A stretch of 64,000 bases of DNA from Sporichthyaceae bacterium. GTDB lineage: Bacteria > Actinomycetota > Actinomycetes > Sporichthyales > Sporichthyaceae. The stretch is taken from assembly GCA_036493475.1 (NCBI GenBank), contig DASXPS010000056.1, positions 1 through 64,000 of the forward strand, in the 5' to 3' direction. How positions within the stretch are numbered: the first letter of the stretch is position 1; every line of letters starts with the position of its first letter. A program made the translations under genes and the position numbers. Below are positions 44,949-57,413 of this stretch, piece by piece. The notes below the pieces were generated by a model, which searched no databases, was not told the DNA's origin, and saw nothing but the letters and a program-made list of their open reading frames with translations.

Positions 44949-46925
44949 ATGAACGGACGTATTCCCATCACCGATGTGCAGCCGCAGGTGGATTGCGCCA
45001 CCCGGCCCGCGAAGGCTGTCGTCGACGAGGTCTTCGAGGTCCGCGCCACCGTCTTCCGGGAGGGCCACGACGCGGTCTCCGCCAACGTGGTGCTGCGCGA
45101 TCCGCGCGGCAAACCGGGCCCGCTGATCCCGATGCGGTTGCTGGCGCCGGGCACCGACCGCTGGGGGGCGGACATCTCCGCCGCGCGGCAGGGACGCTGG
45201 ACGTTCACGGTGGAGGCCTGGAGCGATCCGGTGGCCAGCTGGCAGCACGACGCGGGCATCAAGGTCAACAACGGCATGGACACCGAGCTGATGCTCGAGG
45301 AGGGCGCGCGGCTGTTCAGCCGCGCGGCGGAGGGGGTGCCCGCGGACGACGGGCGGGACGTGGTGCTGGACGCGGTGAGCGCGCTGCGCGACCGCAGCCG
45401 ACCCGCCCTGGTGCGGTTGGCCGCGGGCATGTCCCCGGAGCTGGCCGCGGTGCTGTCCAGGTACCCGGTACGCGACATGTTGACCGCGTCCAAGCGCTAT
45501 CCGCTGCAGGTGGAACGGCGTGCGGCGCTGTACTCCAGCTGGTATGAGTTCTTCCCGCGCAGTGAGGGCGCCACCCTGGACCCGCCGCGGTCCGGCACCT
45601 TCCGCACCGCCGCGGAACGTCTACCGGCGATCGCCGCCATGGGCTTCGACGTGGTGTACCTCCCGCCGATCCACCCAATCGGCCACGCCTATCGCAAGGG
45701 CGCGAACAACACCCTCACGCCGGGCCCGGACGACCCCGGGTCCCCGTGGGCGATCGGTTCGGAGGACGGCGGCCACGACGCGGTGCACCCCGACCTGGGC
45801 ACCCTGGAGGACTTCGACGCCTTCGTCGGCCGGGTTCGCGAGCTGGGCATGGAGATCGCGCTCGACCTCGCGCTGCAGTGCTCCCCGGACCACCCGTGGG
45901 TCAAGGAGCACCCGGAGTGGTTCACCACCCGCGCCGACGGCACCATCGCCTACGCGGAAAACCCACCGAAGAAGTACCAGGACATCTACCCGGTCAACTT
46001 CGACAACGACCCGGAGGGCCTGTTCGTCGAGGTGCTGCGCGTGCTGCGGCACTGGATGGACCACGGGGTGCGCGTCTTCCGGGTGGACAACCCGCACACC
46101 AAGCCGGTGATGTTCTGGGAGGAACTGCTCGGCGAGATCCGCAAGACCGACCCGGATGTGGTGTTCCTGGCCGAGGCGTTCACCCGTCCGGCGATGATGC
46201 GCGAGCTGGCCAAGGTCGGCTTCCAGCAGTCCTACACGTACTTCACCTGGCGTACCGAGAAGGCGGAACTGCAGGCCTATGCCGAGGAGTTGGCCGAGGA
46301 GACCGGCCACTTCATGCGCCCGAACTTCTTCGTCAACACCCCGGACATCCTGCACGCGTTCCTGCAGTACGGCGGCCCGCCCGCGTTCCGCATTCGGGCC
46401 GTACTGGCGGCCACCCTGTCCCCCGCCTGGGGGGTCTACTCCGGCTACGAGTTGTTCGAGCACGTCGCGGTGCGACCGGGCAGCGAGGAATATCTGGACT
46501 CGGAGAAGTACCAGTACCGCCCGCGCGACTGGGCCGCGGCGGAGGCCGAGGGTCGCAGCCTGGCGCCGTACCTGACCCTGCTCAACCGGGTGCGTCGCGA
46601 CCACCCGGCGCTGCAGCAACTGCGCGACATCACCTTCCACCCGGTCGACAACCCCGCGATGCTCGCGTACTCCAAGTCCGCACCCCTGCCCGGCAGCGGA
46701 CGGGACACGGTGTTCGTGGTGATCAACCTGGACCCGCACGGGGCGCGGGAGGCCATCCTCACCGTGAACCTGGCCGCACTGGGCATGGCCGAGGGTGATC
46801 GGTTCGTGGTTTCGGACGTGTTCACCGGGGCCAGTTACACCTGGGGCGATGCGAACTACGTCCGGCTGGATCCGTTCGTCGAGCCCGCCCACTTGCTGAC
46901 GGTCCATCCGATCGAGACGGGTTAG
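44949..46925 (+). CDS. glgE: Alpha-1,4-glucan:maltose-1-phosphate maltosyltransferase
   Basis: GH13_3 enzyme of 658 aa that extends alpha-1,4-glucan with maltose from maltose 1-phosphate. The N-terminal beta domain (about 1-110) is followed by a helical bundle and the barrel. The nucleophile Asp380 is in [10 protein letters not shown] and the acid/base Glu409 in FLAEAFTRP; the 29-residue spacing equals that in the characterised family. TTGACA at 44915-44920 may be part of its promoter, but no well-spaced -10 was found. It begins the glgE-treS-pep2-glgB operon, with only 4 bp to treS. Confidence 0.97.
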
Positions 46926-46929
46926 CCAG

Positions 46930-48663
<1,734 letters not shown>

Positions 48664-48678
48664 TCCTCGCGATGCTGG

Positions 48679-48745
48679 TCAACCCGCTTCAATCGGCTCG
48701 GCAGCGAGAGTGAAAGCGTGCTCTCGCTGCGCTCGCCTCAATCGC
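48679..48745. repeat. Dispersed intergenic repeat, copy 3, with 10-bp hairpin
   Basis: TCAACCCGCTTCAATCGGCTCGG and GCTCGCCTCAATCGC flank a perfect 10-bp inverted repeat (GCAGCGAGAG at 48701-48710 with CTCTCGCTGC at 48721-48730, 10-base loop). The flanks are the inverse of those in the repeat at 2282-2370. It separates treS from pep2 and may weaken or modulate read-through. Confidence 0.6.
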
Positions 48746-48780
48746 GGGTAAGGGCTCCTCCGGGGGGTAAAAGCCGAAGC

Positions 48781-50199
48781 ATGACCCCCGAAGTGATGAT
48801 GCCCTGGCTGAGCGGACGGCGATGGTTCGCCGGCAAAGGACGGCAGGTCAGCGACGTGACCCTGGCCGCGTCCGGCTGGCTGCAGGACAATCCGCCCGTG
48901 CGCATCGAGTTCGTCACGGTGCGCTACGCCGACGCCGAGGGCGAGGAGGCCCCGCAGGACACCTACCAGGTTCCGGTGGTCTACCGCCGCGAGCCGCTGG
49001 AAAGCCTGGGCCATGCGCTGATCGGGCAGACCGAGCTGGCGGAGCACGGCGACGGGCCATGGTGGGTCTACGACGCGCTGTACGACAAGGAAGTCACCGG
49101 CCTGTGGCCGACGGGCATGCGCGAGGACCGCGACACCGAGGGCATGGCGTTCCGCCACGAACCCGCCAACGCAACCCCGGACACCCCGGCAGAGGCGAAC
49201 GTGTTGTCCGGTGAGCAGTCCAACACCTCGCTGGTGTTCGGCGACGCGATGATCCTCAAGGTGTTCCGTCGGCTCGCCGACGGCCCGAACCCGGACGTGG
49301 AGTTGCACCACGCGCTCGCCGAGGCGGGCAACAGCCGGGTGGCCGCGCTGCTCGGCTGGGTGGAGGGCGAGTGGCCGAACGGGCAGCGCCCGCACCACGG
49401 CACGCTGGCCATCGCGAGTGAATTCCTGACCTCGGCCACGGCCGGCTGGGACGCCGCCCTGACCAGCGTGCGTGACCTGTACGCACAGCCGGACGGGGTG
49501 AGCGCGGACGATGCGGGCGGGGATTTCGCCGGGGAGTCCTGCCGACTGGGTGAGGCCACCGCGGAGGTGCACGCCGATCTGGCCCGCATGCTCGGTGACG
49601 CCGAATTGGACCAGCCCGCGCGCGCCGACCTGGCCGCGGAGATGTCCGCACGATTGGCCGCGGCGTGCGTGGTGGTGCCCGAACTGGATCCCTATCGCAC
49701 GCACATGACCGCGGTGTACGCCCGACTCGCGAGCTTCACCGGTCCGCTGCGCAAGCAACGCGTGCACGGCGACCTGCATCTGGGTCAGGTAATGCGCAGC
49801 GCAACGGGTTGGCGGATCCTCGACTTCGAGGGTGAGCCGGCCCGGCCGATGGCGGCCCGACGGGGCATGGACTGTCCACTCAAGGACGTCGCGGGGATGA
49901 TCCGTTCCTTCGACTATGCGGCCCGTCACCTGTTGCCCGGCGCCCCGAACACCGCGGCGTCCCGGGCCACCGAATGGGCCGAACGCAACCAACAGGCCTA
50001 CCTGGAGGGCTACGCACGCACCATCGGCGCCGCCCCGGAAGCCGACCCGCTGCTCGCGTTTGTGCTGGACAAGGCCTGCTATGAGGTGTTGTACGAAGCA
50101 CGCAACCGGCCCGACTGGCTGAACGTGCCGTTGTCCGCAATCGAGGGCTTGCTCGCCACCGCTTCTCCAGGCGCCCACCCGGGAGGATATTCCTCGTGA
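48781..50199 (+). CDS. pep2: Maltokinase
   Basis: ATP-dependent maltose kinase (also mak) making maltose 1-phosphate for GlgE. The 472-aa protein starts [20 protein letters not shown] at the ATG at 48781; the longer frame runs into repeat DNA. The kinase-like core has the catalytic HGD with Asp331 ([10 protein letters not shown]) and the metal-binding Asp348 ([10 protein letters not shown]). Its stop overlaps the glgB start (GTGA), so these two proteins are translationally coupled. Confidence 0.95.
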
Positions 50200-52388
50200 C
50201 CACCACGCCCCATCTCGCGCGCACCGCTCCAGTGGGTGCCGACGAACTCGCGCGCCTGGTCGCCGGCGCGCACCACGACCCGCACTCGGTCCTCGGCGCG
50301 CATCCGCACGCCGGGGCGGTCACCATCCGGGCGCTGCGCCCATTCGCCCGAGAGATCAACGCGCTGGTCGGCAACGAGCGGTATCCCCTGGTACACGAGT
50401 ACGAGGGCGTCTTCGTCGGGCTCGTCCCCGGCGAGACCGTGCCGGACTACCGCCTGGAGGTGATCTACGAGGGCGACACCTGGGTGGTCGACGACCCGTA
50501 CCGGTTCCTGCCCACGCTGGGCGAAATCGACCGGCATCTGATCGCCGAGGGACGGCACGAGCAGCTGTGGGACGTGCTGGGCGCGCACGTCCGTCGGTAT
50601 GACGCGCCGTCAGGACCCATCGTCGGCACGTCGTTCGCCGTCTGGGCGCCGAATGCCCGCGGGGTGCGGGTGGTCGGCGAACTCAACTATTGGGACGGTC
50701 GCGCGCACCCGATGCGCACGTTGGGCTCCACCGGGGTGTGGGAGCTGTTCGTGCCGGGCATCGGCAACGGCTCCTGCTACAAGTTCGAGATCCTCGGCCC
50801 GGACGGCCGGTGGCGGCAGAAGGCCGACCCGTTGGCCTTCGCCACCGAGGTGCCACCGAAGACCGCGTCGCGGGTGTATGAGTCGCGCTACGTGTGGAAC
50901 GACGAGGAGTGGATGACCCGGCGTACGCAACACGCGCCCGAAACGGGCCCGATGAGCGTGTACGAGGTGCACCTGGGCTCCTGGCGGGCCGGGCTGTCCT
51001 ATACCGACCTGGCCGACCAACTCGTCGCGCATGTGCGCGAGCTCGGCTTCACCCACGTGGAGTTCCTCCCGGTGGCCGAGCACCCCTTCGGCGGCTCGTG
51101 GGGATATCAGGTCTCCTCGTACTTCGCGCCCACCGCGCGTTTCGGCGACCCGGACGACTTCCGGCTGCTGGTGGACCGGCTGCATCAGGCCGGCGTCGGC
51201 GTCATCGTCGACTGGGTACCCGCGCACTTCCCCAAGGACGAGTGGGCGCTGGCCGACTTCGACGGCACCGATCTCTACGAGCACCCCGACCCCCGTCGCG
51301 GGGAGCAGCCCGACTGGGGCACGTTGGTGTTCAACTACGGGCGCACCGAGGTTCGCAACTTCCTGGTCGCCAACGCCTGCTACTGGCTCGAGGAGTTCCA
51401 CATCGACGGGCTGCGGGTCGATGCCGTGGCCTCGATGCTCTACCTGGATTACTCCCGCGAGGAAGGTCAGTGGACGCCGAACAAGTACGGCGGCCGGGAG
51501 AACCTGGAGGCGGTCTCGTTCCTGCAGGAGATGAACGCGACGGTCTACAAGCGGGTGCCCGGCGCGTTCACCGTGGCCGAGGAATCCACCGCGTGGCCGG
51601 GCGTCACCCGGCCCACGCATCTGGGCGGGTTGGGCTTCGGCTTCAAGTGGAACATGGGCTGGATGCACGACTCGTTGGCCTACATCCGCCAGGACCCGGT
51701 GCACCGCAGCTACCACCACCACGAGATGACGTTCTCGATGATGTACGCGTGGTCGGAGAACTACGTGTTGCCGATCTCGCACGACGAGGTGGTGCACGGC
51801 AAGGGCTCGATGTTCGGCAAGATGCCCGGCGACCGCTGGCAGAAGCTGGCCAATCTGCGTGCCTACCTGGCCTTCATGTGGGCCCACCCCGGCAAGCAAT
51901 TGGTGTTCATGGGTGCGGAGCTGGGCCAGGAATCGGAGTGGTCGGAATCCCGCTCGCTGGACTGGTGGTTGCTCGAGCATCCCGATCACGCCGGCGTGCA
52001 ACAACTGGTCGGTGACCTGAACGCGGTCTACCGGGACACCCCGGCGATGTGGCAGTTGGACGTCTCGCCGGACGGCTTCGCCTGGATCGACGCGAACGAC
52101 TCGAACAGCAATGTGTTCTCGTTCCTGCGCTACGGCGCGGACGGCTCGGTGCTGGCCAGCGTGTCGAACTTCGCCAACATGGTGCACTCCAACTACCGAC
52201 TCGGCCTGCCCCAGCCGGGCCGCTGGGCCGAGGTGCTGAACACCGACGCCACCGGTTATGCCGGCAGCGGGGTGGGCAACCTCGGTGGGGTGGGCGCGGT
52301 TGCCGAGCCGTGGCATGGGCTGCCCACCTCGACCAGGCTCACCCTGCCGCCGCTGGGCACCATCTGGTTGCGGTACGTACCGGGCTGA
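50196..52388 (+). CDS. glgB: 1,4-alpha-glucan branching enzyme
   Basis: GH13_9 enzyme of 730 aa that makes alpha-1,6 branches. N-terminal CBM48 domains are followed by the catalytic barrel with nucleophile Asp409 ([17 protein letters not shown]), acid/base Glu462 ([11 protein letters not shown]) and [12 protein letters not shown] for the third acid. The start is GTG in a GTGA overlap with pep2. It closes the glgE cluster; the gap to the glycosyltransferase gene downstream is 89 bp and holds no clear terminator. Confidence 0.97.
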
Positions 52389-52477
52389 CGGCCCTTCCCC
52401 CGGACGGCGGAAGCACGTTTCGTCGCGACTGTCCGATTTGTACGGTCGGCAGGAGCGTCGGAATCAGGGGGGACGTC

Positions 52478-53605
52478 ATGACCTCGGTCGGCCTGTGCAT
52501 GATCGTCAAAAATGAGGCACACGTGATCGAGCGTTGCTTGGGCTCGGTGCGCACGTTCGTCGATCACTGGACCATCGTTGACACCGGCTCCACCGATGGC
52601 ACGCAAGAGTTGATCCGCGCACTGCTCGGTGACACCCCGGGTCACCTGCACGAGCGCCCGTGGCGCGACTTCGGGCACAACCGGTCCGAGGCGTTGGCCC
52701 TGGCCCGGCCGCATGCCGACTACAGCTTCGTGATCGACGCCGACGAAGTGCTCGAGGCGCCCACCGGTTTTGGCTGGCCCGACCTCACCGCGGACGCGGT
52801 CCACCTCCAGCACCGCACCGGTGCGACGACCTACCGCCGGGCGAGCCTGGTGGCCAACCGCCTGGCATGGCTCTATCGCGGCGTGCTGCACGAGTACCTC
52901 GAAGTGCCCGGCGTGGCGACCGCCTCGACGTACCTGGACGGGCCGGTGGTCTCGGGGCTTTTCGACGGAGGCCGCAGTCAGGGCGTGAGCCCCGCCGAGA
53001 AGTACGCCCGCGACGCCCTGGTGCTCGAGGCGGCGCTGGCCGCCGAGCCCGACAACGCCCGCTACCAGTACTACCTGGCCCGCAGCTATCGGGACAGCGG
53101 GCAGCTCACCAAGGCCCTCGAGGCGTTTCGTCGGCGCGCGATCATGGGTGGCTTCGACGAGGAGGTGGCCGACTCGCTGTTCGAGGTGGCCCGTCACCTC
53201 GAAACCCTGCAGGCCGACCCCGACGAGATCGTGGTGGCCTACCTGAAGGCCTGGGAGCATCGTCCCAGCCGCGCGGAGGCGTTGACGGAGCTTGCCCGCC
53301 ACGCCCGGGAGGCCAAGCGGTTCCCACTGGCTCGTCTCGTCGCGCAACAGGCGATGCGACTCCCGCGTCCGGCAGGCGACCTGCTCTGGGTGCAGGAGGA
53401 CGTGTACTCCTGGCGCAGCGAGGACGAATTTGCGGTTGCGTCGTACTGGACGGGGCACTACGCGGAGTCGGCTGCGGCCTGCCGCCACCTGCTCGCCGGC
53501 GACCAGCTGCCCGCGGAGCAGCGGGCCCGAGTCGTCGCGAATCTCGATTTCGCGCAGAGTCGCTGCCCGGCGGAGCCCGGGCTGCTGCCGGCGCAACGCG
53601 CCTGA
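52478..53605 (+). CDS. GT2-family glycosyltransferase with C-terminal TPR-like repeats
   Basis: 375 aa. The GT-A start is MTSVGLCMIVKNEAHVIERC, then VDTGSTDGT at 34-42 and the metal-binding VIDADE with DAD at 87-89. From about 180 there are TPR-like helices (ARYQYYLARSYRDSGQLTKA). This arrangement is common in SunS-type and other peptide or cell-surface glycosyltransferases. The ATG at 52478 follows AGGGGGG. It is the first gene of the locus that holds a putative oxygenase, a collagen-like protein and a second glycosyltransferase; a role in modifying the collagen-like protein is inferred. Confidence 0.88.
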   Translation: MTSVGLCMIVKNEAHVIERCLGSVRTFVDHWTIVDTGSTDGTQELIRALLGDTPGHLHERPWRDFGHNRSEALALARPHADYSFVIDADEVLEAPTGFGWPDLTADAVHLQHRTGATTYRRASLVANRLAWLYRGVLHEYLEVPGVATASTYLDGPVVSGLFDGGRSQGVSPAEKYARDALVLEAALAAEPDNARYQYYLARSYRDSGQLTKALEAFRRRAIMGGFDEEVADSLFEVARHLETLQADPDEIVVAYLKAWEHRPSRAEALTELARHAREAKRFPLARLVAQQAMRLPRPAGDLLWVQEDVYSWRSEDEFAVASYWTGHYAESAAACRHLLAGDQLPAEQRARVVANLDFAQSRCPAEPGLLPAQRA

Positions 53606-53617
53606 TGCCACGTCCGC

Positions 53618-54421
53618 TCAGACGTCGAAGAAGAACAACTGCACGAGCCGGGACGCATCGGCAGGCTCCCGGAACCCCTCGTACGACGAGGCCGAATGGA
53701 TCAGGCTGGCGTCCCAGACGACCAGCCGGTTGTAGACCGCGCCCACCGCCTCGACAAGTTCCCAGTTGTCCGGGTGCTCGAGGTTGTAGGCCTCGTAAAC
53801 CGCAGCCTCGGCATCCGCGATCGCCTCGGTCGTGCCCAGCCGGCGCGTCTCGAGCGGATGGGTGGGACGACGCCGGCACCCGTGGGTGCGGTCGCGCCAA
53901 AAGCTGGTCCCGCTGCCCAGCGGTGCATCCGGCGTCAGATAAATCGCGGCCGCGTAGCTCTGGCTGTCGTGATGCCACACCAGCGGGTCGGCGTGGCCGG
54001 TCTGCTGAAAGCAGCCGTTGGCGTTGTGCCCGAGCCACTCGGTAACCGCGGTGCCGAGCAGCCGACCGAACTCTTCGCGCAGTCCTGGCCAGAGAAATCG
54101 TTGGTCCGATCGCAGGCCTTTGAAGTACGCCGGGTTGGACTGATAGCGCTGGGCCAGAGCCAACGCGCGGATTTCGTCGGGGTTCTGGAGAAAATCGTCC
54201 ACCACCAGCAGGTGCGGCACCCGCCGGTGAAAGGGATCGGTGGCCCGGTCCGACTCCTGGTGGGCATCAAGGATCTGCCGGGGTATCCACATGGGCAGGC
54301 GCGCCTCACCGTTCTCGATCAGGTATCCGGGCCGACCGGCCCGCTCACCGACCTCCCGGACGACACTGCGCTGCCCGGCGAAGGTCACCGTCTGACCCAA
54401 CGCGAACGCCCTGTCCGTCAT
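53618..54421 (-). CDS. Putative Fe(II)/2-oxoglutarate-dependent oxygenase (DUF6445-like)
   Basis: 267 aa. The iron triad can be read as His150-x-Asp152 (VWHHDSQ) and His242 (LIHSAS), with Arg258 (SRLVQLFFF) placed to bind 2-oxoglutarate. The strand AAAIYLTPDAPLGSGTSFW between them is typical of the prolyl-4-hydroxylase-like fold. The N-terminal ~55 residues look like a small beta domain. I place it near DUF6445 from memory; confirmation needs a profile search. The gene is transcribed after the collagen-like gene (102 bp away), and it is convergent with the first glycosyltransferase. Its substrate is unknown; that protein is the nearest candidate. Confidence 0.72.
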   Translation of the reverse strand: MTDRAFALGQTVTFAGQRSVVREVGERAGRPGYLIENGEARLPMWIPRQILDAHQESDRATDPFHRRVPHLLVVDDFLQNPDEIRALALAQRYQSNPAYFKGLRSDQRFLWPGLREEFGRLLGTAVTEWLGHNANGCFQQTGHADPLVWHHDSQSYAAAIYLTPDAPLGSGTSFWRDRTHGCRRRPTHPLETRRLGTTEAIADAEAAVYEAYNLEHPDNWELVEAVGAVYNRLVVWDASLIHSASSYEGFREPADASRLVQLFFFDV

Positions 54422-54523
54422 CGTCGCCCCACCCGATCAACCCGCGCGATCCCGGACAAACGTTACGCGTTGGCCGGCACCGGCCGCGGCCATTGCTCCG
54501 TCCGGACGATGGCTGACGGTCCG

Positions 54524-55783
54524 TCAGTGAGTTACCGGCGCGGCCGTGTCGGCACACACAACGTAAGCGTGGGCGACGGAGGAGGAGTCGGTGCCACTCA
54601 CCGTCCAACCATCGGGCGTCGGTTCCGACGATTGCACGGCAGAGGAGCCGAAAAGGCCACCCTGGACGTCGCCGCCGCCACCGAGTCGCGCATCTCCCGC
54701 GTCACACGAAGCCGTGGCGGTGCCGTGGGAGGTCGCCTGGTTGGTGTAGACGTGGGGGAAGCCCGGTCCCTGCGGACCCTGTGGACCCGTGAGGCCCTGT
54801 GCACCCGTGGCGCCCTGCGCGCCGGTGTGACCCTGAGAACCCTGTGCGCCGGTCAGCCCCTGCGCACCGGTCAGTCCCTGCGCACCCGTCGCCCCCTGCG
54901 CACCATTGTGACCCTGAAAGCCTTGCGCGCCGGTGTGACCCTGCGCACCGGTCAGGCCCTGGGCACCGGTCAGCCCCTGCGCACCCGTCGTGCCCTGCGC
55001 ACCCGTCGTGCCCTGCGCACCATTGTGACCCTGAGAACCCTGCGCGCCGGTCGGCCCCTGGGCACCCGTATCCCCGGTCTCACCGCGGGGACCACGAAAG
55101 CCCTGCGAGCCCTGCGTACCCGCGGCGCCCTGCGCACCCGTCAGCCCCTGCGCACCCGTCGCACCGATCGCACCCTGCGCACCATTGTGACCCTGCGAGC
55201 CCTGTGCACCGGTCAGCCCCTGCGCACCCGTCAGCCCCTGCGCACCGCTCAGCCCCTGCGCACCGTTGTGACCCTGAGAACCCTGCGCGCCGGTGTGACC
55301 CTGCGCGCCGGTAAGGCCCTGCGCACCGGTATCCCCGGTCTCACCGCGCGGCCCGCGAAAGCCCTGCGAGCCCTGCGCTCCCGCGGCGCCCTGCGCACCG
55401 GTCAGCCCCTGCGCACCGGTCAGCCCCTGCGCCCCCGTGGAACCCTGCACGCCTGTCAAGCCCTGCGCACCCGTCAAGCCCTGCGCGCCCGTAAGGCCCT
55501 GCGCACCCGCAGCCGATCCCGCCGGCCCCTGGGGGCCGGTCGCGCCCCGCGGCCCTGCGGGCCCCTGCGGACCGGTCCGGCCGTGATGGTGATGGCAGTG
55601 GTCCGGCCAGTATGCGTAGCAGGAGTAGTAGTACGGATCGTCGTGCGGACCGATCCGGTCGGAATGAGCCGCCGGCACTGTTGCGGCGTAGGACGAGGCG
55701 CTGTTGCCCAGCGCGGCAGTCAACATCGCCGTGGGCGCAAGCAGCGCCAGCGCCATAAGCCGTTCCCGGTGGTTGATTCGCAC
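54524..55783 (-). CDS. Secreted collagen-like protein
   Basis: 419 aa. A signal peptide (about 1-34) is followed by a Tyr/His-rich segment ([10 protein letters not shown] then DHCHHHH), about 90 Gly-X-Y triplets (68-340) and a ~78-aa globular tail with two Cys. The triplets alternate largely GAQ and GLT. Thr fills about 30 Y positions, Pro none, and one extra Ala breaks the register near residue 90. An 87-residue unit is repeated ([10 protein letters not shown] at 147 and 234). Gly-X-Thr triplets are glycosylated in Bacillus BclA; whether that happens here is inferred from the flanking glycosyltransferases. The GTG start has a GAGG site. A hairpin (CCCCTG/CAGGGG, 55794-55818) lies in the leader. 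Confidence 0.93.
54764..55582 (-). repeat. Collagen Gly-X-Y tandem repeat region
   Basis: A 9-base-period coding repeat is built of Gly-X-Y codons, with a higher-order unit of 261 bp (29 triplets, 87 aa) seen between about 55071 and 55332. It makes the region prone to recombination and sequencing or assembly length error. Confidence 0.85.
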
Positions 55784-55864
55784 GCCGACCTCGCCCCTGT
55801 TTAGTTTCCGACCAGGGGATAGTGGCGGTCGCGGGCCGTGGAGGGGAACAGCATCGGTGGGTGA

Positions 55865-57220
55865 TCACTCGCCCGGCGGACTCGCATTGGCCCATCTGAT
55901 ACCGCGAGCGGCAGGTGGAGGATCCATGGGAGCCCGCGGATGGACGAGCTGACCGCGGGGTGCCTCGGTCAGTCGGCCGGCCAATCCGGATCTGATCGGT
56001 AGATGAAGCCGGTTCAAGGCGGGTACGGGGACCGCCGGCATCTCCGACCACAGGTTGCCGAACCCGGCTTCGCCGTCCCAGCAGAAGTCATCGGCACCCA
56101 GCTGCACCAGGCGAGCATGAATGGCGGCGTCGTAGTGGGTGGAAATGCAGCGCACCAGGCGCTGGATCTCCTGATTGCGCACCGACTGCGTGTTCGTGCC
56201 GCTGGTGTAGTACTGCAGGTAACCGACCTCGGGGATGCGCACCACGGGCGCGTTGAGGAAGGACCGGATACAGATCTCGTAGTCGTCGGCCACGTGCAGC
56301 TTGCGGTTGTGCCCGCCGATGTGGTGGTAGAAGTCCCGCCTCCAGGACCGGAAGTGATTCGGCGTGGAGACGATGTGCCGAATCGTCTTGGCGTTGATCG
56401 GCGGCGCCTCGATCACCACCAGGTCGCGCCAACCGTCCATGGTCCATACCCGGTCCGGTCGGCAGACGCCGAAACCCCAGGCCCAGCCGTTTTCGTAACT
56501 ACGATCGCCACCGAGTTCGTAGACCTCGGCGCAATCGGAGTAGACGAAGCCCGCGTCGGGGTTGGCGCGGAATGCCTCGACCACCCACTCCAGCGCGTAC
56601 GGCGTCAGTTCATCGTCGTGGTCGAGTTCGACCAGGTACGCGCCCTGGCACAGATGGCCGAGCTTGTTCTTGAGTTCGCCGATGTTTCCCGACCGGGAGC
56701 GCTGCCGATACAGCGACACCCGGTGGTCGCGCGCGGCCAACGATTCCAACAGCCGCCAGGTCTCACCATCGTCGTCGGAGTCGTCGACGATGACCCACTC
56801 CCACTCCGCGTGGCTCTGCTGTTGCAGCGAGCGCAGCGCCCGTTCTATCCGCTTCCCGGTCCGATAGGCGGGGGTGAACACCGATACCAGCGGTGGCGCG
56901 TCGGCGGGCTTGGGCACCAAGGCGTCGTGCAGGAAGCAGTGGAGCGCCCGCCCGCCGGCGTCCTCGGGATCCATACCGTCGGGCAGGTTGATCCATCGGC
57001 TGCGCAGCGTGTACGGCAGCCGATGCAGCCGCGGGTAGTTCTCGATCGGCCCGAAGGTCACGATTGCCTGTGGCTCGGTGACCGACAACGCGGCGAGCAA
57101 CTCGTCCTCGCCACCGAACCGATGCACGTCCAGCTCCCGCGTCTCGAAGTCGGGCACCGCAGGTGTGTACAGCTCGCCGCTTCCGCCCAGCACGTACACC
57201 ACCGGCAGACCGATGTTCAT
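55865..57220 (-). CDS. GT2-family glycosyltransferase
   Basis: 451 aa. An N-terminal ~110-aa region of unknown fold (starting MNIGLPVVYVLGGSGELY) precedes a GT-A domain: VSVFTPAYRTG at about 112-122, VIVDDSDDDGETW, and the metal-binding ELDHDDE at about 199-204. The remainder includes RRDFYHHIGGHNRKLHVADD, typical of acceptor-side GT2 segments. The ATG at 57220 follows GGGGGAG. It lies upstream of the collagen-like gene on the same strand and could share its transcript. The sugar and acceptor are unknown. Confidence 0.87.
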   Translation of the reverse strand: MNIGLPVVYVLGGSGELYTPAVPDFETRELDVHRFGGEDELLAALSVTEPQAIVTFGPIENYPRLHRLPYTLRSRWINLPDGMDPEDAGGRALHCFLHDALVPKPADAPPLVSVFTPAYRTGKRIERALRSLQQQSHAEWEWVIVDDSDDDGETWRLLESLAARDHRVSLYRQRSRSGNIGELKNKLGHLCQGAYLVELDHDDELTPYALEWVVEAFRANPDAGFVYSDCAEVYELGGDRSYENGWAWGFGVCRPDRVWTMDGWRDLVVIEAPPINAKTIRHIVSTPNHFRSWRRDFYHHIGGHNRKLHVADDYEICIRSFLNAPVVRIPEVGYLQYYTSGTNTQSVRNQEIQRLVRCISTHYDAAIHARLVQLGADDFCWDGEAGFGNLWSEMPAVPVPALNRLHLPIRSGLAGRLTEAPRGQLVHPRAPMDPPPAARGIRWANASPPGE

Positions 57221-57413
57221 CGCTCCCCCGAGATATCGGCCGATCGAACAGCTCCAGCTAATCGGTCCCCTTTGTCCCGGGTCATGCGGATAAGCCCGAT
57301 TGGGTGACGGCGAACTGACTGACCGTCCGTCCGGTCGGGAAAGGTGGCACGGCCCTTCAACCGGCGCATCCGTACTGACACGACTATCGCGAAGGCCCGA
57401 ATAGGGCCACCAT

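What the first reader, a model, noticed from the sequence alone, without database searches (positions are those of the whole stretch)
52478..57220. Candidate collagen-like glycoprotein locus: two GT2 enzymes, an oxygenase and a Gly-X-Thr protein
A secreted protein with about 90 Gly-X-Y triplets lies between two glycosyltransferase genes and beside a putative Fe(II)/2-oxoglutarate oxygenase. Seen directly: about 30 triplets have Thr at Y, mostly as GLT alternating with GAQ, and none has Pro at Y, so classical prolyl-4-hydroxylation is not the obvious reaction. Known from Bacillus BclA: Gly-X-Thr triplets are O-glycosylated. Inference: the four genes make, decorate and perhaps hydroxylate one surface or spore-associated collagen. 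An actinobacterial collagen modification system that includes an oxygenase would be new to me.
Basis: partly seen in the sequence, partly recalled or inferred. Interest (0 to 1): 0.68.

Follow-up and report, generated by a model that had tools for sequence, protein, structure and literature searches.

The report
Collagen-decorating gene module with oxygenase
An actinobacterium carries a secreted collagen-like protein next to two sugar-attaching enzymes and a predicted iron-dependent oxygenase, and the same set recurs beside glutamine-rich collagens in distant bacteria and in viruses of bacteria, pointing to a so far undescribed way of chemically decorating microbial collagen.

Summary
In detail: a secreted collagen (91 Gly-X-Y triplets) lies between two GT2 glycosyltransferases and beside a DUF6445 protein. 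DUF6445 models confidently as an Fe(II)/2-oxoglutarate oxygenase (pLDDT 93; PDB hits at E<=1e-3 are such oxygenases; H150-x-D152, H242, R258 invariant in 38/38).

The link is not local. Of 10 close orthologs found among ~85,000 species, 8 lie within ~10 kb of a collagen gene (background loci 1/21; distant DUF6445 0/7), usually with a related GT2: Acidimicrobiales, Streptomyces, Thiothrix. Cyanophage contigs carry GT2, GT2-TPR and DUF6445 as one operon, or GT2-TPR fused to DUF6445, often beside collagen-like proteins.

Linked collagens are rich in Gln at Y (34-68% by group, versus a median of 8% in 49 unlinked collagens; p=1.6e-6); Thr does not differ.

Best reading: a mobile collagen hydroxylation-and-glycosylation module, analogous to, but not homologous with, animal/mimivirus lysyl hydroxylase plus glycosyltransferase. 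The modified residue and the chemistry are untested.

The parts
52478..53605 (+). GT2 glycosyltransferase with C-terminal TPR repeats (P0001), cytosolic; convergent with the oxygenase gene (12-bp gap)
   Evidence: PF13704 42 bits, PF00535 36 bits, TPR; phrog_13126 E 3.5e-30; relatives beside collagen in Streptomyces, beside DUF6445 in Mycobacterium ST-F2 and cyanophages; tree
53618..54421 (-). DUF6445 protein, putative Fe(II)/2-oxoglutarate oxygenase (P0002): N-terminal beta-rich domain (about residues 1-57) plus oxygenase domain with H150-x-D152, H242, R258
   Evidence: PF20043 58 bits; AF2 pLDDT 93.4; Foldseek; motif 38/38
54524..55783 (-). Secreted collagen-like protein (P0003): signal peptide, His-rich stretch, 91 Gly-X-Y triplets (Gln 48%, Thr 33% at Y), ~80-residue C-terminal domain; no cell-wall anchor seen
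   Evidence: (PF01391 148 bits)
55865..57220 (-). GT2 glycosyltransferase with an N-terminal extension (P0004); same strand and upstream of collagen and oxygenase (gaps 81 and 102 bp), likely one operon
   Evidence: PF00535 68 bits; 40% identity to a Peribacillus plasmid GT 1.3 kb from a collagen gene; tree
52389..57413 (.). Extent of the inserted four-gene block: in two genomes of the same family the stretch from treS/mak/glgB to the lipoprotein/ABC genes is present without it
   Evidence: L456, L457

Best explanation
The locus is a dedicated collagen post-translational modification module. Shown: the four genes are intact, the oxygenase has the predicted fold and the metal/2-oxoglutarate ligands of Fe(II)/2OG hydroxylases, and a module of collagen + GT2 + DUF6445 oxygenase (often + GT2-TPR) is co-conserved in unrelated bacteria and phages. 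Inferred: the collagen chain is made in the cytosol; the DUF6445 enzyme hydroxylates side chains of the Gly-X-Y region (most likely Gln at Y, with Thr/Asn or an attached sugar as alternatives) and the GT2 enzymes add sugars (in the Streptomyces version probably dTDP-rhamnose-derived, since the collagen gene sits inside rmlA-rmlC-rmlB-rmlD), either on the new hydroxyl, as in animal and mimivirus collagen, or on separate residues; the decorated chain is then exported through its signal peptide and forms a surface or matrix fibre. Phages use the same enzyme types on collagen-like, probably tail-fibre, proteins.
For: 8 of 10 close P0002 orthologs within ~10 kb of a collagen gene vs 1/21 background loci (p=5e-5; 5/6 lineages, p=4e-4) and 0/7 distant DUF6445. 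GT2 of the P0004/GT2-MT kind beside or near them in L111, L112, L113, L115-L119, elsewhere in the genome in S. albiflavescens and near a second collagen in the Acidimicrobiaceae genome. All 4 DUF6445-carrying Streptomyces have the GT2-MT, found in 20/247 sampled (chance 4e-5); 19 of those 20 GT2-MT loci have a collagen gene, many inside rmlABCD. Phage operons GT2-MT>GT2-TPR>DUF6445 (L131, L145, L146, L164, L202), with collagen on the same contig in L145, L164, L202, and one-ORF GT2-TPR-DUF6445 fusions (L191, L192); DUF6445 among GT and 2OG genes or near collagen in named cyanophages. A giant-virus (Satyrvirus) protein named GT2-like matches the oxygenase model over 213 columns. Fold, motif. 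Gln-at-Y signal; also within one genome (48% linked vs low in two unlinked collagens of G000).
Against: No biochemistry. DUF6445 is optional: most Streptomyces collagen-GT2 loci lack it, and these collagens are equally Gln-rich, so Gln tracks the GT2s rather than the oxygenase. Viral collagens are Gln-rich with or without DUF6445 nearby (52 vs 57%). DUF6445 relatives elsewhere sit in peptide/RiPP-like or other contexts, so the family is not collagen-only. Mycobacterium ST-F2 has GT2, DUF6445 and GT2-TPR but no convincing collagen in its assembly. Cytosolic sugar addition before Sec export has few precedents. GT2 also fits capsule or O-chain work. Gln at Y also helps unhydroxylated triple helices (general knowledge), which could explain its abundance without any modification.
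Confidence: 0.72

Rival explanations
1. Collagen glycosylation only: the GT2s glycosylate the collagen, but the DUF6445 enzyme oxidises the sugar (or the nucleotide-sugar precursor) and not an amino acid side chain, so the module makes a tailored glycan.
For: DUF6445 lies among sugar genes and GTs in cyanophages S-SSM7 and Sf-FS3 and is optional in rml-containing Streptomyces loci; Foldseek neighbours include the aminoglycoside oxygenases KanJ and HygX; the related GT2s are fused to a methyltransferase-like domain, typical of glycan tailoring.
Against: Top fold neighbours are prolyl hydroxylases acting on proteins (PHD2, P. putida P4H); DUF6445 occurs with RiPP-type genes such as TfuA-like and DUF692.
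Confidence: 0.3
2. One reading: Thr at Y (GLT) is O-glycosylated as in Bacillus BclA, and the oxygenase hydroxylates some other residue of the same protein.
For: 33% Thr at Y here; 20-56% Thr at Y also in the non-Streptomyces oxygenase-linked collagens; Thr already carries an acceptor hydroxyl; Thr is the glycosylation site in BclA (general knowledge).
Against: Streptomyces collagens beside the same oxygenase and GT2 have 0-1% Thr at Y; Thr at Y does not separate linked from unlinked collagens (p=0.8).
Confidence: 0.25
3. Coincidental neighbours: capsule or polysaccharide genes and a stray oxygenase that landed beside a collagen gene in a variable region.
For: The block is an insertion absent from relatives; the oxygenase is rare in the phylum sample (1/397); GT2 genes are common; the GT2-TPR is of a lineage-own type.
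Against: Recurs in several actinobacterial orders, Thiothrix and phages with the same partners, and as a gene fusion.
Confidence: 0.08

Closest known systems
Mimivirus L230 (bifunctional collagen lysyl hydroxylase-glucosyltransferase) and animal PLOD/COLGALT
   Same: Collagen Gly-X-Y substrate, an Fe(II)/2OG oxygenase paired or fused with a glycosyltransferase (PMC9614988)
   Different: GT2 and DUF6445 instead of GT25 and the PLOD-type hydroxylase; the collagen has no Lys at Y at all
Bacillus exosporium collagens (BclA/BclB, B. megaterium BclA1) and plasmid-borne glycosyltransferases near them
   Same: Bacterial collagen with linked GTs; P0004 has long homologs (N-terminal part included) on Peribacillus and Priestia plasmids beside collagen, BclB-like or spore-coat genes
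   Different: No oxygenase seen there; B. megaterium BclA1 is GXT-type (PMC4674009), whereas the collagens beside the P0004 homolog in Peribacillus are 74-90% Gln at Y
Prolyl 4-hydroxylases (PHD2/EGLN, P. putida P4H)
   Same: Nearest solved folds to P0002; HxD...H iron site and distal Arg
   Different: TM-scores only 0.3-0.5, 10-16% identity; no Pro at Y in the candidate substrate
SunS-type peptide S-glycosyltransferases
   Same: GT2 enzymes acting on peptides; local similarity of the P0001 GT2 domain to TIGR04195
   Different: 30 bits against a cut-off of 350; no sublancin-like peptide at the locus
Cyanophage fibre regions with 2OG oxygenases, GTs and collagen-like proteins
   Same: Same enzyme families, in places as one operon
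   Different: Phage structural proteins instead of a secreted bacterial protein; no account of these genes as a collagen modification system was found in the papers searched

Membership tests
Fe(II)/2-oxoglutarate oxygenase superfamily | HxD...H iron triad and a distal Arg for 2-oxoglutarate | tested here: met
   H150, D152, H242, R258 identical in 38/38 aligned homologs
Fe(II)/2-oxoglutarate oxygenase superfamily | Double-stranded beta-helix fold | tested here: met
   AF2 model pLDDT 93.4; the listed PDB hits at E<=1e-3 are 2OG-type oxygenases, probability about 1.0 though TM 0.3-0.5
Fe(II)/2-oxoglutarate oxygenase superfamily | 2-oxoglutarate-dependent hydroxylation | not testable with these tools
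   needs enzyme assay
DUF6445 (PF20043) | Score above gathering threshold | tested here: met
   58.3 bits vs 24
Collagen (PF01391) | Long uninterrupted Gly-X-Y repeat | tested here: met
   91 triplets, 83 in one run
Collagen (PF01391) | Triple helix formation | not testable with these tools
   needs circular dichroism
GT2 glycosyltransferases | GT2 domain above cut-off with acidic donor/metal motif | tested here: met
   PF00535 36 and 68 bits vs 23; VELDHDD in P0004 invariant in its collagen-linked relatives
Mimivirus L230 / lysyl hydroxylase-GT collagen system | Lys at Y as substrate; GT25 plus PLOD-type domains | tested here: not met
   0 Lys at Y; only GT2 and DUF6445 families found
Classical collagen prolyl-4-hydroxylation | Pro at Y | tested here: not met
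   0 of 91
BclA-type exosporium system | Thr-rich Gly-X-Thr collagen as the shared feature of the linked collagens | tested here: not met
   Thr not enriched in linked collagens, Gln is
BclA-type exosporium system | Spore surface location | not testable with these tools
   needs microscopy or proteomics
SunS S-glycosyltransferase | TIGR04195 above cut-off | tested here: not met
   30 vs 350 bits

The most novel reading that the evidence does not exclude
DUF6445 is a new class of collagen hydroxylase acting on glutamine in Gly-X-Gln triplets, and GT2 enzymes glycosylate the resulting hydroxyl: a prokaryotic and phage counterpart of hydroxylysine glycosylation, with new amino-acid chemistry, shared between bacteria, tailed phages and possibly giant viruses.
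Probability: 0.25. Interest if true: 0.9.

Novelty: new variant of a known kind. Interest (0 to 1): 0.72.

Why it matters
Bacterial collagens are usually treated as unhydroxylated. A conserved oxygenase-glycosyltransferase module in several bacterial groups and in cyanophages would show that coupled collagen hydroxylation/glycosylation arose outside animals and mimiviruses with different enzymes. It would assign a function to DUF6445 (a PHROG now labelled 'minor coat protein'), explain part of the many 2OG and GT genes in cyanophage fibre regions, and offer new tools for making modified recombinant collagen. It gives a direct prediction: modification of Gly-X-Gln triplets.

Tried and rejected
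First AlphaFold job with 7 similar orthologs failed (pLDDT 44); a 38-sequence diverse alignment solved it. Orthologs in the own family and genus: none for the oxygenase. PhoH viral loci used as control: collagen 1/31 vs 11/37 in DUF6445 loci, but with length matching only p~0.03, so the viral enrichment is moderate; the operons and fusions carry more weight. P0007 viral scan was a poor control because that GH130-like gene itself accompanies DUF6445 and collagen. Literature searches for DUF6445, Gly-X-Gln and actinobacterial collagen glycosylation returned nothing. Profile search of PDB sequences gave no relative. SunS/sublancin-type reading rejected. Chance neighbourhood rejected.
Full report
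What is there. The window holds treS, a maltokinase and glgB (46930-52388, +), then four genes: a GT2 glycosyltransferase with TPR repeats (52478-53605, +), a DUF6445 protein (53618-54421, -), a collagen-like protein (54524-55783, -) and a second GT2 (55865-57220, -), followed by a lipoprotein and ABC transporter genes. GT2, collagen and DUF6445 read in one direction with gaps of 81 and 102 bp, so they probably form an operon; the GT2-TPR gene converges on it with a 12-bp gap. The collagen has a signal peptide and 91 Gly-X-Y triplets with Gln (44), Thr (30) and no Pro or Lys at Y. No other collagen lies in the window.

The block is an insertion. In two genomes of the same family the order treS-mak-glgB is followed by a thioredoxin-like gene and then the lipoprotein and ABC genes, with none of the four genes. 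In the other genome of the same genus the contig ends just upstream of the lipoprotein, so its state is unknown; a search of that genome found no oxygenase.

The oxygenase. P0002 scores 58 bits to PF20043. In a 38-member alignment H150, D152, H242, R258, N231 and R232 never change. The AlphaFold2 model (pLDDT 93.4, pTM 0.83) hits HIF prolyl hydroxylase, a proline hydroxylase, P. putida prolyl-4-hydroxylase, KanJ and HygX in PDB (E about 1e-4 to 1e-3, probability about 1.0, TM 0.3-0.5). This supports an Fe(II)/2OG oxygenase of its own family. Among viral models the second match is a Satyrvirus protein annotated as GT2-like (213 columns, 26% identity), which suggests a GT2-oxygenase fusion in a giant virus; I did not read that protein.

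Co-conservation. One scan of ~85,000 bacterial and archaeal species found 10 close orthologs: Acidimicrobiaceae, Acidimicrobiales, an Actinomycetes MAG, Mycobacterium sp. ST-F2, four Streptomyces and two Thiothrix. Eight have a collagen gene in the fetched locus. The exceptions are S. albiflavescens, whose collagen and GT2-MT lie on another scaffold, and Mycobacterium, where the contig ends inside the P0004 ortholog and the order P0004-type GT2 > DUF6445 > < GT2-TPR equals that of the window without the collagen. Background loci: 1/21; distant DUF6445: 0/7. In Thiothrix the order is DUF6445, GT2, a 164-aa gene, collagen. The P0002 type is rare: 1/397 genomes in a phylum sample, 2/247 Streptomyces (one of them distant).

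The wider collagen-GT2 locus. A GT2 with a C-terminal methyltransferase-like domain, sister to the P0004 clade, occurs in 20/247 Streptomyces and 19 of these 20 loci have a collagen gene, often between rmlC and rmlB. The same GT2 type adjoins collagens in four other actinobacterial genomes (L063-L067). P0004 itself groups with GTs on Peribacillus and Priestia plasmids near exosporium-type genes and with a jumbo-phage GT. So glycosylation is the core and the oxygenase an optional addition.

Phages. Of 37 non-redundant IMG/VR loci around DUF6445, 11 hold a collagen, 16 a GT2 of this kind and 12 a GT2-TPR, versus 1, 1 and 0 of 31 PhoH control loci (with a minimum locus length p is 0.03-0.10). Overlapping operons GT2-MT, GT2-TPR, DUF6445 are seen in L131, L145, L146, L164, L202, and GT2-TPR fused to DUF6445 in L191 and L192. 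Named cyanophages show DUF6445 near a collagen-like protein (DSL-LC02, S-CREM1) and among GTs (S-SSM7, Sf-FS3).

Which residue? Linked collagens are 34-68% Gln at Y in ten lineage groups, and 74-90% in the Peribacillus plasmid collagens (75% in a 12-triplet stretch in Priestia); 49 unlinked actinobacterial collagens found with the same query have a median of 8% (Mann-Whitney p=1.6e-6), while Thr at Y does not differ (p=0.8). The contrast also holds inside single genomes. Caveats: controls come from one search; the collagens could share descent with the enzymes; phage collagens are Gln-rich regardless; and Streptomyces loci without the oxygenase are equally Gln-rich. Gln-rich repeats therefore mark the GT2-linked collagens; that Gln is the modified residue is inference.

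Mechanism. By analogy with mimivirus L230, which hydroxylates collagen Lys and glucosylates it (PMC9614988), I propose hydroxylation by DUF6445 and glycosylation by GT2 in the cytosol before export. Which comes first, and whether the oxygenase acts on protein or sugar, is open; hence the rival at 0.3, which shares the collagen-decoration core with the best explanation (the confidences are therefore not exclusive).

Role of the GT2-TPR. P0001 falls in a well-supported clade of copies from its own bacterial family, several of them next to arg genes, whereas Streptomyces uses its own copies. The type recurs beside the module in Streptomyces, Mycobacterium, G038 and phages, so it is a likely but less certain member.

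Noticed in passing
L232-L250, L068, L115, L116 (Streptomyces): A collagen-like gene sits inside the dTDP-rhamnose operon (rmlA-rmlC-collagen-rmlB-rmlD-GT2-MT) in many of the 8% of sampled Streptomyces that have the GT2-MT; no description of it was found in the papers searched.
   Followed up: partly
L096 (Synechococcus phage S-CREM1) 247-9726: A collagen-like gene followed by a tryptophan halogenase and a row of about nine 2OG/JmjC oxygenase genes, one of them DUF6445.
   Followed up: no
L103 5291-7189; L211 7791-10081: Other DUF6445 genes lie beside RiPP-like genes (TfuA-like, DUF692; a small peptide gene plus another candidate oxygenase), suggesting peptide substrates for the family.
   Followed up: no
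L106, L107 (735-kb uncultured phage LR756501): A jumbo phage carries both a full-length P0004-like GT2 and a P0001-like GT2-TPR, without a collagen nearby.
   Followed up: partly
L251-L329 (viral, P0007 family): A GH130-like protein annotated in a cyanophage as beta-mannosyltransferase accompanies DUF6445 (26/58) and collagen (30/58): probably another part of the phage fibre-decoration set.
   Followed up: partly
53696-55804 +: A 702-codon open frame antisense to the collagen and oxygenase genes, a side effect of repeat composition that misled a codon-based gene caller.
   Followed up: yes
PHROG 1644 (hit by P0002, P0006, P0011): The DUF6445 PHROG is labelled 'minor coat protein' although its members carry the iron and 2-oxoglutarate ligands of an oxygenase.
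   Followed up: partly
44949-52388 +: A maltosyltransferase/treS/maltokinase/glgB cluster (GlgE-type alpha-glucan pathway) immediately upstream of the block.
   Followed up: no
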